Source of the DNA: Marchantia polymorpha subsp. ruderalis
Lineage: Eukaryota; Streptophyta; Marchantiopsida; Marchantiales; Marchantiaceae
Assembly (NCBI GenBank): GCA_037833965.1
Contig: AP031355.1
Coordinates: forward strand, 24,453,501 to 24,517,500
Direction: 5' to 3'
Length of the DNA stretch: 64,000 nt
The notes beneath the pieces were generated by a model. The model had not been told where the DNA came from, made no database searches, and was given only the letters and a program-made list of their open reading frames with translations. Below, in pieces: positions 6,285 through 55,087 of the stretch. Numbering within the stretch: position 1 is the stretch's first letter; every line of letters begins with the position of its first letter. Made by a program: the position numbers and the translations under genes.

Positions 6285-9016
<2,732 letters not shown>

Positions 9017-10044
9017 TCGGTTAATATTCCTGTAAAAAAGAGTTCAGGCTTTACGTTTTGTCCCCCTTTGGGGGCTCAACAAGTTTATGTTGCAACCTCA
9101 ACATGAACATATTTTTTGTATCTAATAATTTATCATACAAAATTACATCTTGCTTTGCAAGCTCGGATTATTCATCATATCTCCCAAGGTGCATAGGTGC
9201 ATCTCGTTATCTACTACGGGTTATTATTCTCGCCACAAGTTTTGCTACTTGTTCTTCCATTTATGTCATTGGCACCTCTCTTCTTGGATGATTTGTTGTT
9301 TTGATTGTAGCTATGTGTTGTCTGACAATTCATACGCAAGTTCCAGGACAGAGCCTGTACTTGAAAGTTTGATCATAGTAGTTTGGGTTGTCAAGGAAAG
9401 ATTTGCTTGTGGTAGAGGTGGCTCAACTCGCGGCGTCCAGGTATTGCACGGTAGAGCTGTGCGAACACTATCTGCAAGTCAGAAAGAGCTCTTCTCCGGA
9501 AGATATTTCGAATCTCTGTCAGGAGGTGACTCAGAAGGTCAAACGACATGAAAGGAGTATACGTGTTTGAATGTCTTCATTGGCTTTGTGAGAACTTCAC
9601 GAAGAAGGATTTAGTTGGAATGTTTGTTGAGTTTATGAAGGTTCCAAGTGGGAACATGTGGATACTACTGTTAGGAGCTATTCTGCGCTAAGTTTGCGTG
9701 CCATAAACTTTGCGCAGAGTGTGTTCATGAACTTGGTTTGAGTATCTCACATGCATTTGCTGTACATTGGAATTTGTTTCCTTGACATTGCAGTTGTAGT
9801 TGGAATTTGGCTTACTCTAACGCGCTAGGCATGCCATGGTGCTATGTGGTGCTTCCTCACCATATTCATAATTGACTTTCCCTCACCTACTTTGGTAACT
9901 TGATGGTTAATGAGTAAGTTAATGCTGTGGTAAGTGCCTCTGGAATATTTTCTTCCTATAATGTCAGTATTGAAATAAACGCTTATATACAAATATGTGA
10001 TTTGTCCATGAAGGGTTATAACTACTTCCAAAATAGGGTGTTCG

Positions 10045-42342: not shown

Positions 42343-42814
42343 TGTGAGCCTAAACTCCCCACCCTTCAGCATTTGTAGTCCAGGTGGGGGTTCGAGCTCC
42401 CATAATCTAACTTCTCTGATCTCAACCATGTGGTCAAAGTGTATTCAAGACAATGAGATCATAAACACTTGCTCTTTCACAGACAAATTATCCAAAACTG
42501 AAAATAATAACTTGCTGTCTGCTATCTCCACAAGAGCAGCAGACAAGCTCTTTGTTACATAAAGATCTAACCCAACTCTGGGTGACTTTCTCAATACCAC
42601 AATCGCTGTGGTCTATCCTAGCTCCGAGTTCCACTCCCAATTCCTACTCAGATTTCAGTGTCGATTTCTCAGCATCCACCTTCAGACCCCACCAGATTCC
42701 TCTCTCAGATTCAACTCTCCCTTTTCAGTTTCAAATTCTGATCCTTATTCTCAAATTTCAGTCTCAGATTTCGCTTCACTCACAGCTACCATTCTCAGGT
42801 CTTCCACTCTGATC

Positions 42815-43122
42815 TCGGATCCCACTCACAGATTACACTTCAATCTCAGATCCCACTCACGGATTTCACTTCAATCTCGGATCCCACTCACAGATTACAC
42901 TTCAATCTCGGATGCCACTCACAGATTACACTTCAATCTCAGATCCCACTCTCAGGTCTTCCACTCACAGATTACACTTCAATCTTAGATCCCACTCTCA
43001 GGTCTTCCACTCACAGATTATAATTCAATCTCAGATCCCACTCTCATGTCTTCCACTCACAGATTACACTTCAATTTCAGATCCCACTCTCAGATCTTCC
43101 ATTCCGATTTCAGCTCCCACTC
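42815..43122. repeat. Two-length minisatellite in element C
   Basis: Units begin at 42815, 42846, 42877, 42908, 42939, 42985, 43031 and 43077. The first four are 31 bp, and the later ones are 46 bp because they carry an extra 15-bp word (tctcaggtcttccac). The unit reads roughly tcagatcccactcacagatt followed by acacttcaatc. Confidence 0.9.
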
Positions 43123-43596
43123 ACAGATTTTCCACATCAGATACAACTCTCTACCCACGAGAGGTTGCTTCCTCCTACTTCGAACACTCCACACTCCCCT
43201 CCTAATCCTCACCACTCCCTTGCGAAAATCACTCACATCCACACTCTATTCCAGCGACCAATCCCACCAGCGTCACCACACAATGGCACACCACACGATC
43301 TCTATCCCCAGGCTGAAAATTCCTCTCCAACGTTCAAGGGCCGAGTCACCCACAGCCCGCGTGAATGTCATTCCCGCGATGATGTGCAACGGCCTGGCTC
43401 CCATGTGCAACTTCATGCCCCGCCGCTGCCACACCTGTACAGTCTTTATTTATGATCACGTCAACATCCGCCGTCCGAAATTGTCTTCCGCTCACCGCCG
43501 AAGGCATCCCCCCGCCGAAGACACTCTTCTGCACCTTTGCCAATCTATAACAGTCACCCCGACGCCTATAACTCACAGATTCCTGCCTCGTTTGAA

Positions 43597-44840
43597 ACGT
43601 TCTTGGGCTCGTTGGAACAAGCGTGTTGTGTTCTTTCCAACGAGCACCTAAATAAGTCAAACCGATAAGAATTGAGAAAGTTATGACGGTTTTACTCTTC
43701 CGCCAAAGGCGTTTGCCTATCCGCAAGCGTCCGCGTCCTACCCGCAGGCCGACTATCCGCACGCGTCCGCCTACTTGCAGGCGTCCGCGTCCTCCACGCA
43801 CGCCGCCTACTCGCAGGTCGTCCTTGGGCCAAAGGCCCCTCTATATGTTAACGCCGAAGGCTTCTCTAACTGTTAACGCCGAAGGCCTCTCGCCTAACCA
43901 TGACAGCCGCTTTCGACGCTCATAACTCATTGATGACTGATCCGTTTTAAGAGATCTTGGTCTCGTTGGAACCAGCGCGTCGAGTTCTTTCCAACGAGAA
44001 CCGAATCAAGTCAAACCGCTAAGAATTGAAAAAGATATGCGGGTTTTACTGCTTCGCCGAAGGCCTGCAACCGCCGAAGGAGTCCGTCCGCGCATAGGAC
44101 AAAAGTTGAACTCCCTTCCGCGTAGGCGGAATTCCCGCCGGAGTCGAACTCCTTCCGCCGAAGTCGAACGTCTACGTATCTTCCGATAGTCATAACTCCC
44201 TAAGTTCTTATCCGTTCCAAGCGTTCTTGAGCTCGTTAGAACGAGCGTGTCGAGCTCTTTCCAACGAGACCCTAACCAACGCAAACCGTTAAGAATTGAA
44301 AACGTTATGTTGGTTTTACTGCTTCGCCGAAGGCCTGCAACCGCCGAAGGCGTCCGTTTGCGCATAGGACAAAAGTTGATCTCCCTTCCGCGTAGGCGGA
44401 ATTCCCGCCGGAGTCGAACTCCTTCCGCCGAAGGCGAACGTCTACGTATCTTCCGATAGTCATAACTCCCTAAGTCCTCATCCGTTCCAAGCGTTCTTGA
44501 GCTCGTTAGAACGAACGTGTTGAGCTCTTTCCAACAAGACCCTAACCAATGCAAACCGTTAAGAATTGAAAACGTTATCACGATTTTACCCTTCCGCCAA
44601 AGGCGTTTGCCTATGCGCAGGAGTCCGCGTCCTACACGCAAGCCGCCTACGCTCAACCCGCCGAAGACCCTCCATATCAGAAACTTCCGCCGCTCCTAAC
44701 TCGGTGATGCCTCATCCGTTTCAAGAGTTCTTGGTCTTGTTGGAACGAGCGTCGCGAGCTCTTTCAACAAGACTCTAATTGAGTCAAGGGGTCACACATT
44801 GAAAAAGTTATGAGAGTTTCACTCCTTCGCCGAAGGCCTT
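43597..44840. repeat. Five tandem copies of the A/B/C leader module
   Basis: Module starts at 43597, 43951, 44221, 44491 and 44725; the central spacings are exactly 270 bp. Each copy opens with a conserved block (gttcttg-gctcgttggaa ... ctctttccaacgagac) that can fold with about 10-bp arms (CTCGTTGGAA/TTCCAACGAG). It is followed by a GCC-GAA-GGC hairpin zone and a ccgcgcataggac hairpin. Single homologous blocks lie in element A (about 40420-40545) and element B (about 50180-50400). Confidence 0.85.
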
Positions 44841-45024
44841 TTCCCGAAGGGACTTCCCCGAAGGCACTTCGCCGAAGACCTTGCCCCGAAGACCTCCTTC
44901 CGCACCTCTTACCCCCTAACCATCACACCAACTCCTAATCTTGCAGAAACTTTCAGAAAACCCCAAGCATAATTTTGCAAGAGCTTAAATCCAAACTTTT
45001 AACTCTCATTAGGGTAAAAAGACA

Positions 45025-45048
45025 TGTGAGCACAGTTTTGTGCTCACA
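45025..45048. repeat. Terminal perfect hairpin of element C
   Basis: TGTGAGCAC (45025-45033), loop agtttt, GTGCTCACA (45040-45048). The same word TGTGAGC opens the element at its other end. Confidence 0.9.
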
Positions 45049-45052
45049 CCTC

Positions 45053-45288
45053 CAACTCAATCCACTTGGAGAAATGCTCCACCATCACCAACACATACCG
45101 ATGATGTCGTGTAGTCAAAGGTAGTGGTCGAGCAAAGTCCAAACTCCAAATATAACCCAATCCCATGATAGGTAAGGGATGTAACTCTGGTTTCGGGGCA
45201 TTGAACGATGCCCTCACTCGATCACAAACCATGCAACGTGATACCAACTACTGTACCTGCGTATGCATACCACGCCACCAATACTGAC
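45053..45288 (-). pseudogene. Gypsy integrase, zinc-binding end and proximal core (fossil)
   Basis: Contains the YWWRGM motif that usually follows the HHCC finger, SRCMVCDRVRASFN, and the proximal core SLDFARPLPL...YVLVMVEHFSKWIEL. It lies between elements B and C. Its two flanks are the insertion points that prove both elements came later. Confidence 0.85.
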
Positions 45289-45388
45289 TGTAATAACCCA
45301 CTAAAGGCTAAAACTGCAATATAGTGGTAGAAAGGTCGAACCCACAGGGACAGAGGAACACACAGGGTACAAAGTGTCACGTTTTAAC

Positions 45389-46230
45389 AGACTATTGAGG
45401 AGTTTGAATTCTCAGGCAACTGTCACTCCCAGAGAATACTGCAAGTGTCCACTCGGAGCGCACTCGGAGGTCGCACAGTGCAGCGTAACACACACACACA
45501 CACACACCTGAAACTACAGAAACACAACCCAGAGATCCGTTAGGACCTCTACTCAAGATTTCAGGGGGGAAAGTCTCTCGAGGGTACACTCCGCAAAGCT
45601 GCGGGCAGTGACTCCCAACTCCGGCTTTTACAACACTTCCACTAGCTTGCTGCTAGTGTAGGAAACCCGGTTTGGACTGCCTACTTCGGATCGAAGTCAC
45701 TCCTACGCGGTGAACAACACTCTCAACTCACAAAACGCGCAGAGAACACAGGTCCGCACTGAAGGACTCACTGTGAAACATTCCAGTAACACAACAACAG
45801 TCTATTGAAGAGTTTGAATTCTCAGGCACTTGTCATTCCCAGAAATACTACAGGGGTTACCCTCAAGGCACCTGCTGCAGCGTAACCTGAATTTACAACC
45901 AAGGCTTACACAAAGTAGCAAAACTTCACTTTGGCATTCAGGGGAAAAATCCCAAGGAGTACAATCAGAAAGAAACACTCGAAGGTGTAGGGGCGAAACT
46001 GTTCAAGTATCTAACTAGTCACTGGCTCTGAGCATCGGCAGTCACCCGCAGGTGCAGATCCGAACTACTCAAGTCTCTAACCAATGTACTAGCTCTGAAC
46101 ATTCGGCCGAAGGCCTTCAGCTACAAAATGCGGAACGCTAAGTTGTAACTCCTCGTGCGTGGTGACAGAACTCAAGGACACAAACACGCAAAGGAAATGG
46201 GTTCCTGATCTGCACTTCTGATGGGAAAGA
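45389..46230. repeat. Diverged ~410-bp tandem duplication in the 3' part of element B
   Basis: Two blocks begin cagactattgaggagtttga (about 45390) and cagtctattgaagagtttga (about 45801). They share further words in the same order (tcattcccag-type, gcagcgtaac, attcaggggg, gaactactcaag, ctagctctgaacat). Element A has the same layout at about 35619 and 36038, so the duplication predates the split of A and B. Confidence 0.7.
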
Positions 46231-46298
46231 ACCCCAGGCAAAACGCCTGGAACTATTTTATACCCTCTAAGTCCTACCTAACACTACACTGCATTACG

Positions 46299-49200
46299 CT
46301 ACACGCCTGCACGGAACCACGCTACGCTACACTCCGCGGAACCTGTACTACGTCTCCTGCGCGGCCGACTGCCGCGCACTAACTCCCTACCCTGCCACTC
46401 TTCCGCTCGACTACGCAGTCCCAACCTCTGCAACGCCGCGGACACCTCCCCCTCGAGGGCGGACATGGTATCCTGTGCCTTCGACAGAAAGGCCTCGAGC
46501 TTCTTCGCTACCTTCCGCCGACTCCTACTGTCGCCTGACAACAACCCGGCTGCGCGCAATTCAAACTCACGCAGTGTGAGTTTCTCCTGCGCCTTCACTT
46601 CCCAGTGGGCGTAGCCCTTGAGACAGTGGGCGACTCGCCTCGCCGTCTCCACCTTCGTGCGATCCGCCTCCTTCCTGCGATCCTCTTCAATCGTCACTAA
46701 TTGCGATTCGGCTTCAGCACGTTGCGCTCTCAATTCGCCACACTCTGACTGCAAACTGCGGATTAATTCTTCATCCGCCTGCCGTGCGAGCTGACATTGT
46801 TCCAACAACCGCGTCTGTCGCACGAGCTCCTCTGACAAAATCCGATTCTGGGCCTGCTCAGAATCGAGTGCTTCCTTGACCTTCACCTGCTCCTTGGTGA
46901 GCTCGCCCAGTTTCTCATCCTTCATCTTCTCGGAGTGCTTGTAGAATTTCTGATTAAGCTTGTACTGTCCCCACAAGCACTCATGCTTCTCCTTCAAGTC
47001 CCTCAACTCCTGGTCCACTCTAGCTAATAGCTTGCTGGTATGGACTTTAGTGCGAGTCCGCCTGCGCACTAACTCGATGTAAGACCCCGGCTGGAGTGGG
47101 TCGGCGTATTTATCGACCTTGCGATCCAAGTACCGCAGCAACGGAATCACCTGCTCAGAGAGCGCCGCCGCCGGCGCTCCAACAATTTCCTCCTCCTCCT
47201 CCTCGGTGTCTTCTGCTCCTGACATCTCTTCCGTGGAGCCTCCGTCGTCATCATCCGAGTGGAGAATTTCAGTCGCCATTGATTGTGTCGGCGACTGCCC
47301 CGAGTGGGGCTGCACGTCCTCGACGTGTGCTGTCTGCGAAGGCACGGCTGCAGCCTCGCTGCTCATCGCCAAAATGTCTAAGGCGGAAGGCGAATGTATC
47401 CGAGCGGCATCCTTGTCGCTCGCTGGTTGATTGCCTACCGCATTCTCTCTGTCGCCGTCGTTCGTCGCCAAAGGCGATTGAGCGGAAGGTGGCTGGGCGG
47501 GGTTGGATTGCGCATCGCGCATCGAGATTTCATCCCGCGGACAATCACTCCGCTCCTCCGTCTGCTGCTCCCTCGATCGGTCCGTGGGGGCTGTGCCCGG
47601 CCCGTGCGCAGGCGCATTTACCGGCGCCTTGTCCGCCGCAGGCGTAGCGCCGCGGACACCTATCGCCGAAGGCGACATGGTCGGGGGCCGCACGCCCGAT
47701 GTTCCTTGGCCTATAGGCCCTACCGCCGAAGGCGCATCTATCGGCGGGCTTCTCGCCGATGGTGCGGCCTCCGCACGCTCTCTGCTCATATCTCCTCGGC
47801 TCGAAGGCCCTGGCGCCGAAGGCGCAAATTGCGGCGCGTGGTGCGCCGGAGGGTCTGGCCCCGAGGGCCGGTGTCTCGTAGGCGGTTCTTCCGCCGGCTC
47901 CTTCCCCTTCCTGCGTTGGAACGGGGGTGATTCTTGCCTGTGCACAGGCGGCACGTGCGGAGGTGCCCTGTGCACAGGCGACCTGTGCACAGGCGAGCAC
48001 CTGTGCACAGGCGGACTGCTCCTTCCCACGCGTAAGCGTAGATCCACGTCCACTTGTGTTCGCCGATCCGCGGAGGCTCGTCCGTCCGCGGAGGTTTGCC
48101 TGTGCGCAAACGGAACATCTGTCCGCATCGCACGTGGTAACTCCGGAGGCCCTTGGCCCGTAGGCGGCCTATCTCCCGACGAGGTTGCAGCGTGGCCCGT
48201 CTCTCGTGCGGTCGTCCGCGCTCCCTCTCGCCTCTCTGGCGACGCACTTCCTATCTCTGTCGCAATCGTCGCCGTGTCTGCACTGTCAGCTGGTAACACC
48301 AGTCTGCGTGCCTTCTGCTTCGGCCGGCTGTATGGCTCGCACAGCGGCCGCGGTCGAATGGGAGCAGAGGGTTCTTGATGCTGCTCCTCTTCAGACTCTT
48401 CCCTCCATCGCCGCTTCCGCGGCACTCGCGCTGCAGGAGTGTGTCTCCCTTCGTCCCTCCGTCTTGATGGGGTAGAAGTCGGTGACTCCTCTGCATCAGT
48501 GTCGACCTCGTTCTCCCGCACATACTTCCCGGGATGGTCGATGGACAATGGCGGAAAATGTTCAAGCTCCGCCGCTGTCAAACAATTCCGCTGTCGATAA
48601 AAATTGATGAGGAAAGGAGAAAGATGGTTTAGAGTTCCCCCCTTCTCCTCAAACGCGTGCTGTCGCATCACCCTGTGCAGGATGCTCGCCCAGTGAATTG
48701 GAGTTCCCTCGATGACGCATTCCACAAAAGAGACCTGCCACAATGTGATGTAGCAGGCGCGGTGCGGCTGCAGTAATTGCATCAGCGCCGCGGACAGAGT
48801 CCGGCGAAATCGATCTTTGTAATCACGGGTCCTGTACCCATTCTTGGTAGACCTCCCGGTCTTGAACAGCTCCACAAATTGCGCCTCTTCTTGCTTGGTC
48901 ACCTTGATGCTCTCGCTGTCGAAAAGGAGATGCCCTGGCATGCCAGCACATCTTCCCAACGCCTGCGCCCAATCTTGGACTGTCCACCGGTCAACATGCG
49001 GACGCAATCCGCGCGAGGGTGGTCCCTGTGGCTCTAGCCACTCGCGCACCATATTCGCGCAGATGTAATTCCATCCCCATAGTAAGAAATCGAGCTTTCT
49101 TGCTATTAAGCGCTCTTCGAAAGCGCGCAGCCCGTTCTGCGGCAGGCGAAGTGGCACCATCCGCAATCTGCTCGGTCTCGTCATTGCGTTCCTGGGGTTC

Positions 49201-49436
49201 GCTCGCCCGCTCATTCTACTTCCACACTGTCCGCGTTTCTTTCTCTCTCGGCAAACTCTAATCGCTCTCAATTCCAAATCACGCGCACTCACTTCTCCCT
49301 CAATCAACAAGAAATCTCCTGTGTGACGACGTCGAGAATGGTCCGCAGCCAGCAGATGGATGCGCGCAGCGCGCACAAGAGATTGGAATCGCGAATTCAA
49401 GAATGGGACGTTCTCCGCCGCCCGGTCGAAGGTCAT
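46299..49436 (-). CDS. Element B protein, 1045 residues, unknown function
   Basis: One uninterrupted frame starting ATGACCTTCGACC. Residues about 1-330 form a mostly helical, Trp-rich domain (KLDFLLWGWNYICANMVREW; WTVQDWAQALGRC; YITLWQVSFVEC). About 331-690 is a Pro/Arg/Ser-rich disordered linker with PSA/PSG and PVHR repeats spelled by DNA palindromes. About 720-760 is acidic (DDDDGGSTEEM, EDTEEEEEEIVG). About 765-1000 is a strong coiled coil (LLARVDQELRDLKEKHECLW; SEELVRQTRLLEQCQ). The end is basic (RPRRRRSTGS). No transposase DDE/DDD core, reverse transcriptase, Gag knuckle or helicase was recognised. The layout recalls a structural or nucleic-acid-binding Gag-like or plant-transposon ORF, but that is a guess. 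It is conserved with the broken copy in element A. Confidence 0.7.
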   Translation of the reverse strand: MTFDRAAENVPFLNSRFQSLVRAARIHLLAADHSRRRHTGDFLLIEGEVSARDLELRAIRVCRERKKRGQCGSRMSGRANPRNAMTRPSRLRMVPLRLPQNGLRAFEERLIARKLDFLLWGWNYICANMVREWLEPQGPPSRGLRPHVDRWTVQDWAQALGRCAGMPGHLLFDSESIKVTKQEEAQFVELFKTGRSTKNGYRTRDYKDRFRRTLSAALMQLLQPHRACYITLWQVSFVECVIEGTPIHWASILHRVMRQHAFEEKGGTLNHLSPFLINFYRQRNCLTAAELEHFPPLSIDHPGKYVRENEVDTDAEESPTSTPSRRRDEGRHTPAARVPRKRRWREESEEEQHQEPSAPIRPRPLCEPYSRPKQKARRLVLPADSADTATIATEIGSASPERREGARTTARETGHAATSSGDRPPTGQGPPELPRAMRTDVPFAHRQTSADGRASADRRTQVDVDLRLRVGRSSPPVHRCSPVHRSPVHRAPPHVPPVHRQESPPFQRRKGKEPAEEPPTRHRPSGPDPPAHHAPQFAPSAPGPSSRGDMSRERAEAAPSARSPPIDAPSAVGPIGQGTSGVRPPTMSPSAIGVRGATPAADKAPVNAPAHGPGTAPTDRSREQQTEERSDCPRDEISMRDAQSNPAQPPSAQSPLATNDGDRENAVGNQPASDKDAARIHSPSALDILAMSSEAAAVPSQTAHVEDVQPHSGQSPTQSMATEILHSDDDDGGSTEEMSGAEDTEEEEEEIVGAPAAALSEQVIPLLRYLDRKVDKYADPLQPGSYIELVRRRTRTKVHTSKLLARVDQELRDLKEKHECLWGQYKLNQKFYKHSEKMKDEKLGELTKEQVKVKEALDSEQAQNRILSEELVRQTRLLEQCQLARQADEELIRSLQSECGELRAQRAEAESQLVTIEEDRRKEADRTKVETARRVAHCLKGYAHWEVKAQEKLTLREFELRAAGLLSGDSRSRRKVAKKLEAFLSKAQDTMSALEGEVSAALQRLGLRSRAEEWQGRELVRGSRPRRRRSTGSAECSVAWFRAGV
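47936..48012. repeat. Cluster of four GCCTGTGCACAGGC palindromes in the element B ORF
   Basis: Four copies of the 12-14-bp perfect palindrome lie within 77 bp. In the minus-strand frame CCT-GTG-CAC-AGG reads Pro-Val-His-Arg, giving the PVHR repeats of the linker. Further copies lie in the non-coding leader near 49783, 50102 and 50162. Confidence 0.9.
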
Positions 49437-50689
49437 GGTCGGCTCTTGGTCGTGAAGAACGTCTCACTTGATGGCCGCGCCGGCTGTACGCTGGAACGGT
49501 CTTCGCTCTCACGCGCGGCTTCACGCTCCGCCGTCGTCGATTAAACTCTCACGCTCGAATTGGCGGATTTGAACTCCGTGAGCGTGTCACCCTGTGGACA
49601 TGGGGACGTAGCGCCGAAGGCGAGTTTTCCGCCTTGCGCGGTACACTTGTTCGTACCGCCCCTCGGCCAATCTCCTTCTGCCTTGACGCGTGTGTCCGCA
49701 TGTCGGACAAAAATTCAACTCCTGCCTGTGCGCAGGCAGGGGCCTCGGCGGTTTTCTCCGCCGGCGCGGAACTTGAACATCCTCCTGTGCACAGGCGTTC
49801 GCCTGTGCGCAGGCGAATTCCGTCCGCGGCGCTGCGCTGGCGCGGAAGGCGTTGACCGTGGTCAGCCGTCTCCGTCCAGACTGTCCGTTCCTTGTCTCTC
49901 CGTCGGTGCTTCCACTGCCGCAACTCCGTCCGCCCAAGAGCGCATCCACCCGTGCCGTCCGCACGGTCCGTACCTGTTGGATTACTCTGGCGGCTCTTCC
50001 GACGTACGCGGCGCTGCGCTAGCGCGGAAGGCGCCGTACACTTTCTACCTCACAAGGCGCATTTCTAGGGCCCAAGGCGGATTTTCCGCCGACGCCGAAG
50101 TGCCTGTGCACAGGTGTACGCCTGTGCGTAGGCGGACTTCGCGCCTTCCCTAACCCTACTTTGCCTGTGCACAGGCGAACGCCTTCGTCCGCGCATAGGA
50201 CAAAACTTGAATCCCCCTTCCGCGTAGGCGGAATTCGCGCCGGTGGCGAACTCCTTCCGCCGTAGGCGACCGCCTCCGTTTCTTCCAGTAGCGATAACTC
50301 CCTAAGTCCTCGTCCGTTCCAAGCGTTCTTGGGCTCGTTAGAATCAGCGCGTCGAGCTCTTTCCAACGGGACCCTAACTTGGTCAAGGCGCCCAAGGGTT
50401 GACCTAATTACGGGGGCTTCCCTACAGCCGCGGACGCAACCTCCGAAGGCGAGTTTTGCGCCGTGCGCCGTAGAGATCCTAACTGCGGAGCTCGCAGGGA
50501 GGGTGGTGCCTGTCCTTACTGCGGCACCCCAAATCCCAGATTCTACAAGATCCCTCGAGAATTCCCGCGATCTTCCGGATTCACTCTGTTTTGATGTACC
50601 AAAGGCTATTTACAATGCTGCCAGGGTACAGTTTTTCAAAAATGTTTTAATTTCCTCAAAATTGCCAAAAGTGGGGTACCACACTGACC

Positions 50690-51235
50690 AAGGAGTAAGC
50701 TATACGTACGCTTCAGTCCAAAATATCCCAACTCCTCATGAGCATGTCTCACAATGCGTGCTCTCTGAGCTGGATGCAGTACTACTCGTATCCTACCGTC
50801 CTCCCACACTCGGAGAACATGTGGATCCTCCAATCGGTATCCCTTCGCCCGCTGGAGAACACGATCTCGCTCCTTGGCACCCACTGTGCCTGGCACCATA
50901 CTGGTCCGTAAGAACTCCAACACCAACGCATCATCATGAACATAACGCTGGTACACACCACCATCCTCAACCTCAAGATCTGAAGGCTGACTATCTACTC
51001 TCTGACTAGAGTAAGATGTCAAGTGATCCTCATTGCTAGAGGCTCCACGTAACCAACACATGAAGGCAGATGCATGCCAACCGGGCACCATCTCCTCATC
51101 AACCTCACCATGCCATCTAACTCCAGTGTCATCCTCCTGGCTAGTGCATGGGTTCCGACTCAAACCGTCGGCATCCAGGTTCGCAACTCCGGGCCTATGC
51201 ACCAGCTGAAAGTCATACTCTTGTAAGATGAGAGC
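50690..51235 (-). pseudogene. Gypsy RNase H end to integrase zinc-binding region (fossil)
   Basis: Motifs HRPGVANLDADGLSR (typical RNase H C-terminal signature of Ty3/gypsy) and VRHAHEELGYFGLKRTYSLL (His-rich start of the integrase zinc-binding region). Element B interrupts the sequence immediately after LLLGQ. Confidence 0.85.
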
Positions 51236-52621
51236 TCACCGTGCAAGCTTCCCTGTGAGCTTGTTGGACTCCATCAACCACTTGAGCGGCTGATGATCGG
51301 TAACAAGGGTAAACAGCGTACCAAACAAGTAACACCTGAAGTGTGTCACAGCCCACACCGCTGCCAAACACTCTCCCTCGTACGAACTATATCGCGCCTC
51401 TGCTGCATTGTTCGAATCACTAGCGTACGCAACCACAAACTCCTTGCCCTCATCATCACGCTGCGTCAACACCGCTCCAAGTCCTAACATACTTCAATCA
51501 ATGTGCAACTGGTATGAACGACCTTTGATAGGTCTCCTCAAGATGGGAGCGGCCACCAACCTGGTCTTGAGCTCAATAAAAGCTCTCTCCTGCTCATCTT
51601 CCCATTGCCACTCCTGATCCGACTTCAGCAACTACTTCAAAGGCTTCGCTATAGCACTAAATCCCTTCACATACCTCCGGTAATAGTTCGCCAAACCCAT
51701 GAATGCACGAACCCTACTCACATCCGCCGGACAAGGAATGCGCGCAATAGCCTCCACCTTTGCCTGCTGAACTCCCAAACCACCTGGGTAGATCACATGA
51801 CCCAATTACTCCACCTTCTACTGGAAGAACCTACACTTCCCAGGATGTAACCGCAAACCATGAGCCCTAAAACGCTCAAGCACAATTTGCAAATGTATCT
51901 GGTGTTGCTCCACCGTGTCGCTAAACACCAAGATATCATCAATGTAACATCTAACGAAATCTAGCCCCGCTAGAATCCTGTCCATCACTCTTTGGAACTC
52001 GGTAGGTGCATTCTTCAACCCAAAGGGTAAGAATCGCCACAGATACAAACAATCCTTGCCGTGGGAGTTGACGCGCCAAAACGCTGTCTTGGCCTTGTCC
52101 TCCTCTCGAATCGGCAACTGATGATATCTTGCCCGAAGATCCAAAGTACTAAAAATCCTCGCATGTCCCACCACATCAAAGATTTCCTCAGGTGTATGCA
52201 TGGCATACTTATCGGCCTTCGTCTGCCGATTGATAGGACGGTAGTCTCCACACATGCGCCTATCCGTGTAGTTGCCATGTACATCCTTCTTTGCCAGCAT
52301 AACAGTGGCTGAAGCATACTCACCATGCGACAACTCCACTAACCCAGCCTCCAATAACTCCAATGTCCGACTCCGAATCAAATCCCTTTCCATATCACTA
52401 TATCAATAGGGACGATTGAAGATTGGCGTATCAAAGTCCAACTCTATCCGTATGCCAAGTCCAATCAAAGTACCGAACTCCTTCATACTGAAGGCAAAAC
52501 AACTACTATAGTCACGTAGGAATTGTGTCAACCGTCGCCTCTCTCCTCCGGTGATCTGAGAACCAATCGATGGCTCCCACTCCTCCTTCATGGATACACA
52601 AGAGGGAAGCGATACTGTCAC
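51236..52621 (-). pseudogene. Gypsy reverse transcriptase and RNase H (fossil)
   Basis: The reverse transcriptase is recognised by DYRPINRQT, FSTLDLRARYHQLPI, FLPFGLKNAPTEFQRVM and the catalytic YIDDILVFSD box. The RNase H region has LGAVLTQRDDEGKEFVVAY, SSYEGECLAAVWAV and LVTDHQPLKWL. This order and these motifs place the element with Ty3/gypsy rather than Ty1/copia. Broken. Confidence 0.9.
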
Positions 52622-52839
52622 TGGTTGCTATGCCACATCCTCCAAAGAAGGGCTCTCCGTACCCTCCTTCGTAGCAACCTCCACGTGACCAACATCTCCA
52701 ACTGCGTGGGCGGCCACTCTAGCAAGTCCTCTCGTCACGTTCCATGAATTCCAAGGATGACGAATATCTCGCCTGTCGCCCCCAGCCATTGCCACTACCG
52801 TCCCGGTAGACAATGAGCTAACAAGTGGTGTAACAACCA

Positions 52840-53850
52840 CCAAATCAATGTGCAAACGGCGTTGCTCGGCCAAGCCCAAGCTCACAATCCATGTCAAGCA
52901 GTTCAGGTCCATAGCCTGATCCAAAACCTGACGACGCGACGCCTCTGAAATTGAAGAAGCCGCGGTCACACCAGTCATAAATCCCATTGCACGCTCTCTC
53001 TCATCGGCGTTGGGCTCCATCAACTGATGTAGGGTATTGTCCCACAATAGTCCAGGTCCAACTCACAATATGCATGTGATGCCGGATAACTGACTAACGT
53101 AGGTAAAGTCATCCGAGGCTGACCTACGCGGTTCACCAATGCCATTGGTGACCTGTCCGCAACTCTCACCACCTGAGAGTATCGAGAGACATCCAAGATC
53201 CTGTCAACGTTGAGTGTAGGATCGTGATGCACATAATCATACGCATGACGCAATATCTCTCACAGCACAAAGTTGGTCCACCACAAAAGTGCACGATGAG
53301 CACGTGAACCAACCCTCGCAACATCCAACAACACTGTTGATCCAATCCATGCCCTAACCTCATGAACACTCGCCATTAACTAAGCCCGAGTGTCACCCAA
53401 CAATGGTACGTTCTCTAGAATGTATGCTGGAGAACGTGTCTGCTGCTCCTGGAGATGACGTAACACTCGTAGCATCTCCCAAAACATCCGAGATCTAGGG
53501 TCATGCAACCATGCTCCATGCCCAGCGCGTGTGTGCCCCTGACATAGCCATCCCGCAATCACCAAATAGATATGTCCAACTCGATCAAGGTCTGGCGCCC
53601 CCAATAATGAAATGTCAGAAGGCAACGCCTTCTGGTATCCTCGAACAGCTGATTGCGGCAACAACAAAGGAAACGATGCATCAACTATGTGACATGTCGT
53701 GAAGAAACTCGACGTGCAGTCTCGTCCTTCTCCACGTACAAGTATCTACGTACAAGAATACCTGACTGCAACACTGCAGCCAAACCCGTGCTGATCCCTC
53801 CAAAAAGATCCAGCAAACAAACACCCTCTGGGGAATACTCCCATACGATA
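52840..53850 (-). pseudogene. Cytosine-5 DNA methyltransferase domain inside the gypsy element (fossil)
   Basis: Five landmarks of C5 DNA methyltransferases occur in canonical order on the minus strand. Motif I is CLLDLFGGISTGLAAVL (about 53770-53830), the AdoMet-binding loop. The motif IV region is GWLCQGHTRAG (about 53520-53560) with the catalytic-Cys position. The motif VI ENV box is YILENVPL (about 53408-53432). The motif VIII region is SRAHRALLWWTN (about 53275-53310). The motif IX-X region is ERERAMGFMTGV (about 52970-53010) and AMDLNCLTW (about 52895-52925). The order is not permuted, so it is not DRM-like; AHRA--WW resembles the DNMT3 group, tentatively. It lies between protease and reverse transcriptase of the same strand and element. 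It is broken with the rest of the fossil. Confidence 0.85.
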
Positions 53851-54211
53851 GGTGTAGTAACTAATGGTGATAGCGTGCTAGGACCACATACTAGCCGACC
53901 ATCTAAGACTCGCTCTGCCTCTGCTGGTAAAGAGGCCTCACTCCAAGCCTTCTTCACCAAGCTATCAGCCTCCAGCTGTAATGCATGGCAAGAACTCCAA
54001 AGTGGCACATCCAAAGATGAAGACACTGCTGCCGCGAGGCTCACAATCTCCTCCACCTCCTCATGAACTGGAGTATCGTCGGCTGACCTCTTCCCCCCCA
54101 ACAAGTCATCAAGCCATGTAAGCACTCTACTGAAACCCGCAACGGAGGCTAAAACCGCAGGAGAAGATCCCAGAGGTCCATCCCGAGAAATAAATCTCAC
54201 AGGCAACTCGC

Positions 54212-55087
54212 TCATACGTCCATCGCCGGACTGCCAACCAGGACGATAGGCAGCGGTTTCCGTCCAGTAGTCCATCCGAAAACCCATGGATATAACACGG
54301 CTCCACCAACAAGCACATCGTATGACTCTGCTGATGAAACCACCGCACGAACTCCAAACTGCGAGCTATCCTGAGCATGATCATGCCTCAACTGCACTGA
54401 TATGCGCTCTCTGGTCATCATGTAAGACCTATCGCTGGTGCCACCGAGTGATGTCTGAATCTGAAATGGACAAGGCTCCAACTCGGACCTTCGAACTCCC
54501 AAACTAATGCAGGCTGTCTTGCCCAACATCAAGGGCTGTGCACCAGAATCCAGCAACACTCTGGCTGGGACATACACCTGCCCTGTAGCACTCATCAAGC
54601 AAAATACACCACTCTGATTGTCCACCATAGACACACCAGGGACAACACTCTCACGATCAATGGCTGGTCGAGCTCGTAAGAACTCCATCCGCGCCAATGA
54701 TGCCTGCCATGTTGACTCATCGCTCAATGTAGTCGTAGAGTATAGCTCCTCAACCATAGCCTCGCCTATCTCGGCACTCGTAGCAGTGACACTCCCACGT
54801 TCACACAACGTGGCTGCTAAACAAAACACCCGAGCCAAGTCAATCCCAAAGTCTATCAGCTCCGTAGCTGAAAATAGTGAAGATCTCAACACTGAGCTAG
54901 CCATCCGCGTCAGTGCACTAGATGGTGTGTTTGTGTCCACAACACGTGACGTAGATGTCTCAGTCCTCCCACTAAGGTCACTAGGTGGTACACGTCTCAT
55001 GGATGAAGTCCTGCCCACACAAGAACGACTGAGGAAGTCTGGCCTGACGCCCACCCTCACAGTTGTGATACCTTTGTGTGTGGACAC
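54212..55087 (-). pseudogene. Gypsy 5' coding region with retropepsin-like protease (fossil)
   Basis: The protease is recognised by ARVLLDSGAQPLMLGKTAC, the DSGA catalytic box of retropepsins with its usual flanks, and by ESYDVLVGGAVLY further on (the flap and ILG-like end). About 170 residues precede it without a recognisable Gag feature such as a CCHC knuckle. Part of the fossil element. Confidence 0.75.

What the first reader, a model, noticed from the sequence alone, without database searches (positions are those of the whole stretch)
52840..53850. Cytosine DNA methyltransferase carried inside a Ty3/gypsy element
Seen: five C5-methyltransferase landmarks in canonical order on the same strand, between the protease and the reverse transcriptase of one gypsy element. 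Known: cytosine methyltransferases captured by retrotransposons have, as I recall, been reported in dinoflagellates and charophyte algae, and a gypsy element was involved in the latter. A land-plant example would widen that picture and raise the idea of elements that methylate their own or host DNA. Inference: the domain was part of the polyprotein, since the pre-RT linker follows it directly. This copy is a fossil.
Basis: partly seen in the sequence, partly recalled or inferred. Interest (0 to 1): 0.92.

Follow-up and report, generated by a model that had tools for sequence, protein, structure and literature searches.

The report
Liverwort jumping gene carrying DNA methyltransferase
A family of retrotransposons in the liverwort Marchantia carries its own DNMT3-type DNA-methylating enzyme, in many copies of which some are recent and still open, so that a parasite of the genome seems to bring along the very kind of enzyme that plants use to silence it.

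Summary
The window copy is a decayed, nested fragment of a family with 275 matches to its stop junction in the same genome, which is Marchantia polymorpha. Open copies encode Gag–protease–DNMT in one frame, then UAG-CAACCA, then in phase RT–RNase H–integrase–PHD finger. Six DNMT motifs are all kept in 17 of 18 stop-free copies; dN/dS is about 0.12 between two subfamilies; terminal repeats are identical in 6 of 10 copies and 4-bp target duplications flank 9 of 10. The enzyme is DNMT3-like by sequence and fold, but lies far from the host's DNMT3 genes (26–27% identity), in an element lineage shared with other liverworts, Sphagnum, Closterium and metagenomes. Closest known: KnitGypsy-Dnmt3 of Klebsormidium, where the DNMT is reported in the Pol ORF; here it ends the Gag-side ORF. 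Split repeats, a palindromic repeat junction and a 12-nt self-primer suggest self-primed reverse transcription and integration from a circle (inference). Most likely role: methylating its own cDNA (untested). New variant of a known kind.

The parts
50683..55060 (-). body of the DNMT-gypsy copy (end of Gag side to start of integrase), 87.8% identical to copy L021 over 4396 alignment columns
53994..55024 (-). region with the protease (LLDSGAQPLMLGK)
   Evidence: Pfam only weak (RVP_2 E 0.03 in copy L021)
52631..53993 (-). DNMT3-type cytosine methyltransferase region, decayed (frameshifts and stops; motif IV reads GWLCQ, GWPCQ in 18 of 18 stop-free copies)
53784..53810 (-). DNMT motif I, DLFGGISTG
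   Evidence: by eye
53539..53559 (-). DNMT motif IV, changed to IAGWLCQ
   Evidence: by eye
53398..53421 (-). DNMT motif VI, ILENVPLL
   Evidence: by eye
52877..52918 (-). DNMT motif X region, QAMDLNCLTWIVSL
   Evidence: by eye
52622..52630 (-). TAG CAA CCA, the stop and its 3' context between DNMT and RT, kept in both subfamilies
51428..52627 (-). ORF2 start: reverse transcriptase and start of RNase H
50684..51427 (-). RNase H and start of integrase zinc-binding domain
45049..45288 (-). continuation of the same copy's integrase beyond a later insertion
   Evidence: 93.75% nt identity
42064..42342 (-). further continuation of integrase beyond a second insertion
   Evidence: 90.7% nt identity

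Best explanation
SHOWN by sequence: the window holds a dead copy of a high-copy, recently active gypsy-type retrotransposon family of Marchantia polymorpha. Copies with open frames encode Gag–protease–DNMT3-type methyltransferase, UAG-CAACCA, then in phase RT–RNase H–integrase–PHD finger, between split direct repeats (A1 … B1–A2–B2) with TGTC…GACA ends and 4-bp target duplications. The DNMT evolves under purifying selection and groups with its RT lineage in separate trees. INFERRED: the upstream frame is the main product, so the DNMT is made in Gag-like amounts and packaged, while RT–integrase–PHD comes from readthrough of the UAG. Reverse transcription is self-primed by a stretch in repeat A that pairs with the bases directly after A1. 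The cDNA is circularised and opened by the DDE integrase at the palindrome GACAGCTGTC of a repeat, which would explain the split repeats. INFERRED and least certain: the enzyme methylates the element's own double-stranded cDNA before or at integration, so that new copies arrive already marked.
For: Layout: ORF1 of 1351–1361 aa in 10 of 10 copies that were fetched because their frames were long, unbroken 1042-aa ORF2 in 8 of 10. TAG-CAACCA in 10 of 10 of these, in the second subfamily, in the window copy, and in 29 of 30 junction loci (L043 has CAA before CAACCA; two of the 30 are among the 10). Domains: PF00145 1.7e-10, RVT_1 7e-34, rve 1e-13, PHD 1e-10. DNMT3: best solved relatives DNMT3A/3B, E 7e-10; a model of the 73%-identical homologue P0058 matches DNMT3A at E 2.8e-16, TM-score 0.76 by target and 0.46 by query. 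Selection: dN/dS 0.123 for DNMT and 0.149 for protease against L016; medians 0.21, 0.17 and 0.08 for DNMT, RT and PR among copies. Five motifs kept in 18 of 18, ENVPLL in 17. Youth: A1=A2 in 6 of 10, TSD in 9 of 10. Self-primer and palindrome. RT and DNMT trees agree on the main groups. That retrotransposon DNMT3s can methylate CG was shown for Symbiodinium elements (PMC5890265, section 10).
Against: No enzyme activity, transcript, protein, particle or methylome was looked at. The KnitGypsy DNMT gave no methylation in yeast, judged inconclusive by its authors. ORF2 has an AUG 12 codons after the stop, so reinitiation could replace readthrough. Several annotated bryophyte models join DNMT and RT in one protein (P0006, P0010, P0011, P0038, P0123 and others); they are predicted genes that may have skipped the stop, or real variants. 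The C9 copy at 10060255 shows no TSD. The exact 11-nt primer complement is in repeat A2 of 7 of 8 fetched copies that have A2, not in L023, and the bases after A1 were seen in only three places; a 10-nt match arose in 6 of 2000 shuffles. Some copy pairs have DNMT dN/dS up to 0.62. The selection figures use copies chosen for lacking stops, which favours low values. The place of P0042 differs between RT and DNMT trees.
Confidence: 0.55

Rival explanations
1. Chance: a host methyltransferase fragment landed next to a gypsy element, or the motifs are coincidence.
For: In the window alone the Pfam score is below cut-off.
Against: Same order and about 1.3-kb spacing in 79 of 150 RT hits; open frames joining Gag to DNMT in 10 of 10 copies fetched for long frames; separate clade from host DNMT3; same arrangement in proteins of other bryophytes.
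Confidence: 0.01
2. The DNMT acts in trans on the host: it methylates chromatin around insertion sites or host genes, perhaps led by the PHD finger of the integrase, so that the enzyme shapes host expression rather than protecting the cDNA.
For: A PHD finger follows the integrase core; PHD fingers read histone tails (general knowledge).
Against: The PHD is encoded after the stop, so it is joined to the DNMT only in the readthrough product. No methylome data. K. nitens, which carries such elements, has a methylome like that of land plants (PMC5890265 section 9).
Confidence: 0.2
3. The DNMT works without DNA methylation: as a nucleic-acid-binding or chaperone part of Gag, or as an RNA methyltransferase.
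For: It sits at the end of the Gag-side frame; an RNA role was proposed for the Symbiodinium LINE enzyme (PMC5890265 section 11).
Against: The PCQ and ENV catalytic motifs are kept in 18 and 17 of 18 stop-free copies, which mere binding would not need; the fold and nearest relatives are DNMT3, not DNMT2.
Confidence: 0.12
4. ORF2 is translated by reinitiation or from a separate or spliced mRNA, not by UAG readthrough.
For: An in-frame AUG lies 12 codons after the stop; some annotated gene models join the two parts past the stop.
Against: The two frames are in phase in both subfamilies, and UAG-CAACCA fits the leaky CARYYA context (recalled from tobacco mosaic virus work); a plant retroelement, SIRE1, is reported to use stop codon suppression (passage in PMC2829016).
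Confidence: 0.25
5. The split repeats arise as in DIRS/PAT elements by a tyrosine recombinase supplied in trans, not by the element's own DDE integrase acting on a circle.
For: The repeat order is the DIRS order: the passage seen reads A-coding region-B-A and is then cut (PMC5890265); the final B is recalled.
Against: The element encodes an rve integrase and its insertions have 4-bp target duplications, which fit a DDE integrase.
Confidence: 0.1

Closest known systems
KnitGypsy-Dnmt3 of Klebsormidium nitens (de Mendoza et al. 2018, PMC5890265; abstract, sections 9–11 and passages read)
   Same: Dnmt3-type, unrearranged methyltransferase in a gypsy-type element; repeat structure like DIRS with gypsy domains; purifying selection on the DNMT (Ka/Ks < 0.2 there, about 0.12 here between subfamilies)
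   Different: There the DNMT is reported in the Pol polyprotein ORF; here it ends the Gag–protease ORF, before an in-phase UAG. The words PHD and target site do not occur in that text; self-priming was not looked for there. Host is a charophyte alga with fewer copies than Symbiodinium (section 11). No K. nitens sequence was named among the hits, so descent from one element is untested.
SymbioDIRS-Dnmt3 of dinoflagellates (PMC5890265)
   Same: Dnmt3 within a retrotransposon; split repeats of the DIRS kind; CG methylation activity shown in yeast
   Different: DIRS element with tyrosine recombinase; here an rve integrase and target duplications
Tf1/sushi and Tcn1 self-priming gypsy elements (PMC7175516 and PMC6317226, passages)
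   Same: Stretch of at least 10 nt in the 5' repeat complementary to the bases right after it
   Different: By recall those are ordinary two-LTR elements; no DNMT is mentioned in the passages seen
Host MpDNMT3a/MpDNMT3b (P0175, P0172)
   Same: DNMT3 family, unrearranged order
   Different: 26–27% identity, separate clade, no retroelement domain among their Pfam domains

Membership tests
Ty3/gypsy-type retrotransposon (by coding region) | order protease–RT–RNase H–integrase with rve core | tested here: met
   RVT_1, RT_RNaseH, Integrase_H2C2, rve in this order; protease weak (E 0.03–0.12) but DSGA motif present
Ty3/gypsy-type retrotransposon (by coding region) | RT falls in a named gypsy clade | not tested
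   only relatives with DNMT were placed; no reference gypsy set was used
Canonical two-LTR retrotransposon | two identical full repeats at both ends | tested here: not met
   A at the 5' end, B–A–B at the 3' end
DIRS/PAT elements | split direct repeats A…B-A-B | tested here: met
DIRS/PAT elements | tyrosine recombinase, no target duplication | tested here: not met
   rve integrase and no recombinase in the ORF1 and ORF2 pieces scanned; 4-bp TSD in 9 of 10 copies and GGGG at one subfamily-2 copy
DNMT3 family (catalytic domain) | unrearranged motif order I–IV–VI–VIII–X and nearest to DNMT3 | tested here: met
DRM (rearranged plant DNMT) | motifs VI–X before I–V | tested here: not met
   order I to X in P0001; compare the rearranged host frame in L002
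KnitGypsy-Dnmt3 | Dnmt3 in gypsy-type coding region with DIRS-like repeats | tested here: met
KnitGypsy-Dnmt3 | DNMT in the Pol polyprotein ORF | tested here: not met
   a stop separates DNMT from RT in 10 of 10 fetched copies and 29 of 30 loci
KnitGypsy-Dnmt3 | sequence clade with the K. nitens enzyme | not tested
   no K. nitens sequence named among the 53 hits and the 120 listed of 125
Self-priming retroelements (Tf1 type) | at least 10 nt complementary to the bases 0–5 after the 5' repeat | tested here: met
   12 nt at the A1 end of the L021 copy, also in one subfamily-2 copy whose A is 56% identical; A2 of L023 lacks the exact 11-mer
Self-priming retroelements (Tf1 type) | mRNA 5' end at the primer | not testable with these tools
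   no transcript data
Stop-readthrough retroelement | in-phase UAG with leaky context | tested here: met
   the CARYYA rule is recalled
Stop-readthrough retroelement | fusion protein made | not testable with these tools
   needs protein or reporter data

The most novel reading that the evidence does not exclude
Bryophytes host a retrotransposon that packs a de novo DNMT3-type methyltransferase into its particle at Gag level, methylates its own circular cDNA, and integrates from that circle through an internal palindromic site with a PHD-guided integrase, so that new copies arrive pre-methylated; the lineage has kept its enzyme through several domain orders and has moved between distant bryophytes.
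Probability: 0.2. Interest if true: 0.93.

Novelty: new variant of a known kind. Interest (0 to 1): 0.79.

Why it matters
Why a transposon would carry an enzyme of the kind that silences it was left open by the report of the algal and dinoflagellate cases (PMC5890265 section 11). A 2019 review (PMC6338049, passages seen) says DNA-methylase transposons are not present in land plants such as tracheophytes. Here such a family is in a genetically tractable land plant, with recent, open copies and many older ones as natural controls, so the question becomes directly testable with methylome, small-RNA and protein data. The anatomy also offers a mechanism (self-priming, circle, DDE integrase) for split direct repeats in an element without a tyrosine recombinase.

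Tried and rejected
Chance motifs or host-gene insertion: rejected. Ordinary LTRs: none found at both ends; the first 10-kb fetches missed the 5' repeat, and only the upstream fetch showed A1. One search used the wrong strand (minus-strand locus L018 read as plus) and hit a high-copy repeat in the flank of that copy; its result is not used. Viral contigs: one scan, no relative confirmed. The third protein search went to host DNMT3, so the RT was not searched against the large database. In the first DNMT tree several host rows were cut short and long branches stood inside; one search repeats it with fuller host rows and without P0052, P0056 and P0171 (46 of 49 rows). In the duplicate-free selection count repeat fetches of the same copies were dropped: DNMT 27 to 18, RT 26 to 21, PR 21 to 14 rows. 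Deamination in the window copy: 31 of 53 derived changes are C>T or G>A, in 9 of 123 CHG, 7 of 130 CG and 15 of 388 CHH sites; consistent with past methylation, not proof. Horizontal transfer: the element DNMTs of Marchantia and Sphagnum (249 residues) and of Marchantia and Calypogeia are 74% and 75% identical against 49–52% and 58–65% for host DNMT3, and the element tree joins Marchantia with Sphagnum (and two metagenome rows) to the exclusion of Calypogeia (96/91). This is a hint only: the Sphagnum model is incomplete and no DNA was at hand for synonymous distances.

Not in print, as far as searched: Marchantia, retrotransposon, methyltransferase domain, Gypsy (one unrelated review, listing only); Marchantia, DNMT3, retrotransposon (nine papers listed, two seen in passages); split direct repeats, Gypsy, methyltransferase (three, listing only); KnitGypsy (one paper); DNMT3, LTR retrotransposons, bryophyte, Gypsy (one paper); PHD finger, integrase, Gypsy, retrotransposon, Marchantia (none); liverwort, retrotransposon, DNMT, transposons encode, any three (16 papers, 15 listed, listing only). 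A 2025 survey of eukaryotic DNMTs (PMC12344493, passages seen) says that some DNMT3s are embedded in retrotransposons as reported before in streptophytes and dinoflagellates; its tables were not seen and may hold Marchantia rows. The plant LTR survey PMC6317226 has no mention of Marchantia, methyltransferase or PHD in its main text. Most subscription papers are not held.

Full report
WHAT IS IN THE WINDOW. On the minus strand the window holds a protease region (55024–53994), a DNMT region (53993–52631), a TAG followed by CAACCA (52630–52622), RT–RNase H (52627–50684) and, beyond two later insertions, more of the same integrase (45288–45049, 42342–42064). The copy is dead: the frame is broken several times and motif IV reads LCQ where 18 of 18 stop-free copies read PCQ. 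It belongs to a second subfamily: over the DNMT it is 92.7% identical to L016 and 87.9% to L021.

THE FAMILY. The genome (G000; 241 Mb, 9 contigs) is taken to be Marchantia polymorpha: protein MpDNMT3b is recorded on a contig of 31,446,154 bases, the length of the window's own contig. A PF00145 search scored 123 of 290 candidates; 24 of the 123 lie in open frames of 1350 aa or more, and a few of the 123 are host genes. A pattern at the stop junction gives 275 matches with up to 3 mismatches and none for the reversed pattern. RT search: the 150 best of 3141 candidates are 93–100% identical, and 79 of these 150 have a PF00145 hit 1.2–1.8 kb upstream on the same strand, 0.1 expected. Ten copies fetched because their frames were long all have ORF1 (1351–1361 aa) and the same TAG-CAACCA; 8 of 10 have an unbroken ORF2 of 1042 aa in phase. 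Of the first 30 junction loci listed, 29 have TAG and one CAA; 24 hold at least 431 of the 455 residues of the DNMT piece, one 379, and five 22–202.

CODING PARTS. ORF1: Gag (weak Retrotrans_gag, E 0.011), aspartic protease (weak), DNMT (PF00145 1.7e-10). ORF2: RVT_1 7e-34, RNase H 6e-25, Integrase_H2C2 4e-15, rve 1e-13, and a C-terminal PHD finger 1e-10. A leader between A1 and ORF1 holds a further frame of 116–119 aa, ORF0, with no Pfam match above cut-off. Of its 40 best places (126 candidates), 29 have a listed RT hit 4.9–5.6 kb downstream on the same strand. Its dN/dS is 0.23–0.55 in the 15 pairs of six copies; over its last 75 codons one pair exceeds 1 and one has no synonymous change, so selection on ORF0 is only suggested.

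THE ENZYME. Best solved relatives are DNMT3A and 3B (E 7e-10), then HaeIII, DNMT2 and DRM far below. In a model of the homologue P0058, 272 of 472 residues have pLDDT 70 or more and 128 under 50 (mean 69); it matches DNMT3A at E 2.8e-16, TM-score 0.76 by target, and the 50 PDB matches shown are all from DNMT3 entries. Of 18 distinct stop-free copies, 18 keep LDLFGGISTG, YVE, GWPCQGH, SRAHRARLWWTN and LGQAMDLNC, and 17 keep ENVPLL. Against L016, dN/dS is 0.123 for DNMT (17 pairs) and 0.149 for protease (13 pairs); among copies the medians are 0.21 (DNMT, range 0.09–0.62), 0.17 (RT) and 0.08 (PR). Choosing copies without stops favours low values, but dS of 0.28 with dN of 0.03 between subfamilies is more than such a choice would give (judgement).

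RELATIVES. Close relatives are in Calypogeia fissa and Riccia sorocarpa (liverworts), Sphagnum fallax, S. troendelagicum and S. jensenii (mosses), the alga Closterium NIES-54 (P0171: Gag zinc knuckles, protease motif, DNMT; 40% identity over half the query) and many metagenome contigs. Three domain orders occur: Gag–PR–DNMT then a stop; DNMT–RT in one frame (P0122, P0052, P0056); RT–RNase H–DNMT–integrase–PHD (P0040 to P0050, P0055). Some annotated bryophyte models (P0006, P0010, P0011, P0038, P0123 and others) also run from DNMT into RT; whether they skip a stop or lack one was not tested. In the tree of 46 rows the 25 element DNMTs stand apart from host DNMT3 and other DNMT3-like rows (100/100), and the Marchantia-type rows form one group (99/98); Marchantia's element enzyme is 26–27% identical to MpDNMT3a/b. 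RT and DNMT trees of 18 elements both group the four Marchantia-type rows (99/97 and 100/99) and the ten rows of the third layout (100/99 and 79/94); P0042 falls outside the third layout (96/96), and the second layout is not one group in either tree. So the enzyme has by and large stayed with this RT lineage while changing its place in the polyprotein. The trees are unrooted and hold no outgroup such as DNMT1.

TERMINI. Repeat A (about 294 bp) stands at the 5' end and again near the 3' end, flanked there on both sides by B (119 bp): A1 … B1–A2–B2. Ten copies were picked from A pairs 10.6–12.1 kb apart among the 40 listed places: 9 of 10 show a perfect 4-bp duplication outside TGTC…GACA; the L021 copy (ATGT) and a subfamily-2 copy (GGGG) do too, read by eye. 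A1 and A2 are identical in 6 of 10, differ by 1–2 in three, and by 14 of 301 in one. B1 meets A2 in GACAGCTGTC, a perfect palindrome, in 8 of the 10 copies (the match of the other two ends at B1) and in 3 of 3 subfamily-2 copies.

HOW IT MAY WORK. Directly after A1 of the L021 copy stand the bases ACTCGAAGAACT, whose complement AGTTCTTCGAGT lies inside A. The pair is also in a subfamily-2 copy although A there is only 56% identical (127 of 226 columns), and L026 shows the same bases after its A2. The exact 11-mer is in A2 of 7 of 8 fetched copies that have A2, not in L023; six of 2000 shuffles of A gave a 10-nt match. This meets the self-priming rule used in a plant LTR survey (at least 10 bp, 0–5 bp after the 5' LTR; PMC6317226, passages) and resembles Tf1 (first 11 bases; PMC7175516, passage). 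A purine-rich tract AGGGGGGCGAG lies at the start of B1 (10 of 10). If it primes plus-strand synthesis, the cDNA's repeat would be B–A. Joining the ends of such a cDNA into a circle and opening it at the palindrome of one repeat gives exactly A1 … B1–A2–B2, with a DDE-type target duplication. This is inference from anatomy. The DNMT, sitting before a UAG in a context that by recall is leaky, would be made with Gag, and RT–integrase–PHD by readthrough; a plant precedent for stop suppression is SIRE1 (passage in PMC2829016). In this picture the enzyme is present in the particle during cDNA synthesis, and the simplest substrate is the element's own cDNA, the role de Mendoza et al. proposed for Symbiodinium DIRS elements. 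That last step is untested here.

KNOWN OR NEW. The kind is known: KnitGypsy-Dnmt3 (PMC5890265). New here, as far as the searches listed under Tried and rejected go: presence in land plants with hundreds of junction copies and recent insertions; DNMT in the Gag-side frame before a conserved UAG; PHD finger; 4-bp duplications with split repeats; self-primer and palindrome; the shared history of RT and DNMT. A review states absence from land plants such as tracheophytes (PMC6338049, passages), which bryophytes do not strictly contradict.

Noticed in passing
L100 446–1075 (minus strand), leader of a subfamily-2 copy on C9: Coding pieces of a host-type MND1 gene (Mnd1 HTH 2.2e-18, LZ3wCH 2e-18), in broken frames, lie between repeat A1 and ORF1: a captured or inserted host cDNA or gene.
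   Followed up: partly
L018 9262–9682 (minus), L022 317–673 (plus) and other copies: ORF0, an acidic frame of 116–119 aa in the leader, is followed by a poly(A)-like tract about 0.5 kb before ORF1, as if a polyadenylated host transcript had once been captured; the upstream blocks are 76–98% alike among copies while the body is about 98%.
   Followed up: partly
L026, about 8873–9981 read on its minus strand: A tandem arrangement: repeat A2 is followed by the primer-binding bases and a second element start instead of B2, with most of the leader missing.
   Followed up: partly
window 45289–50682 and 42343–45048: Later insertions of about 5.4 and 2.7 kb split the integrase of the window copy; the GC-rich stretch near 50,000 was not identified.
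   Followed up: no
L057/L058 (C3:10327741–10327970): Two copies of the stop junction lie 203 bp apart on opposite strands, an inverted rearrangement.
   Followed up: no
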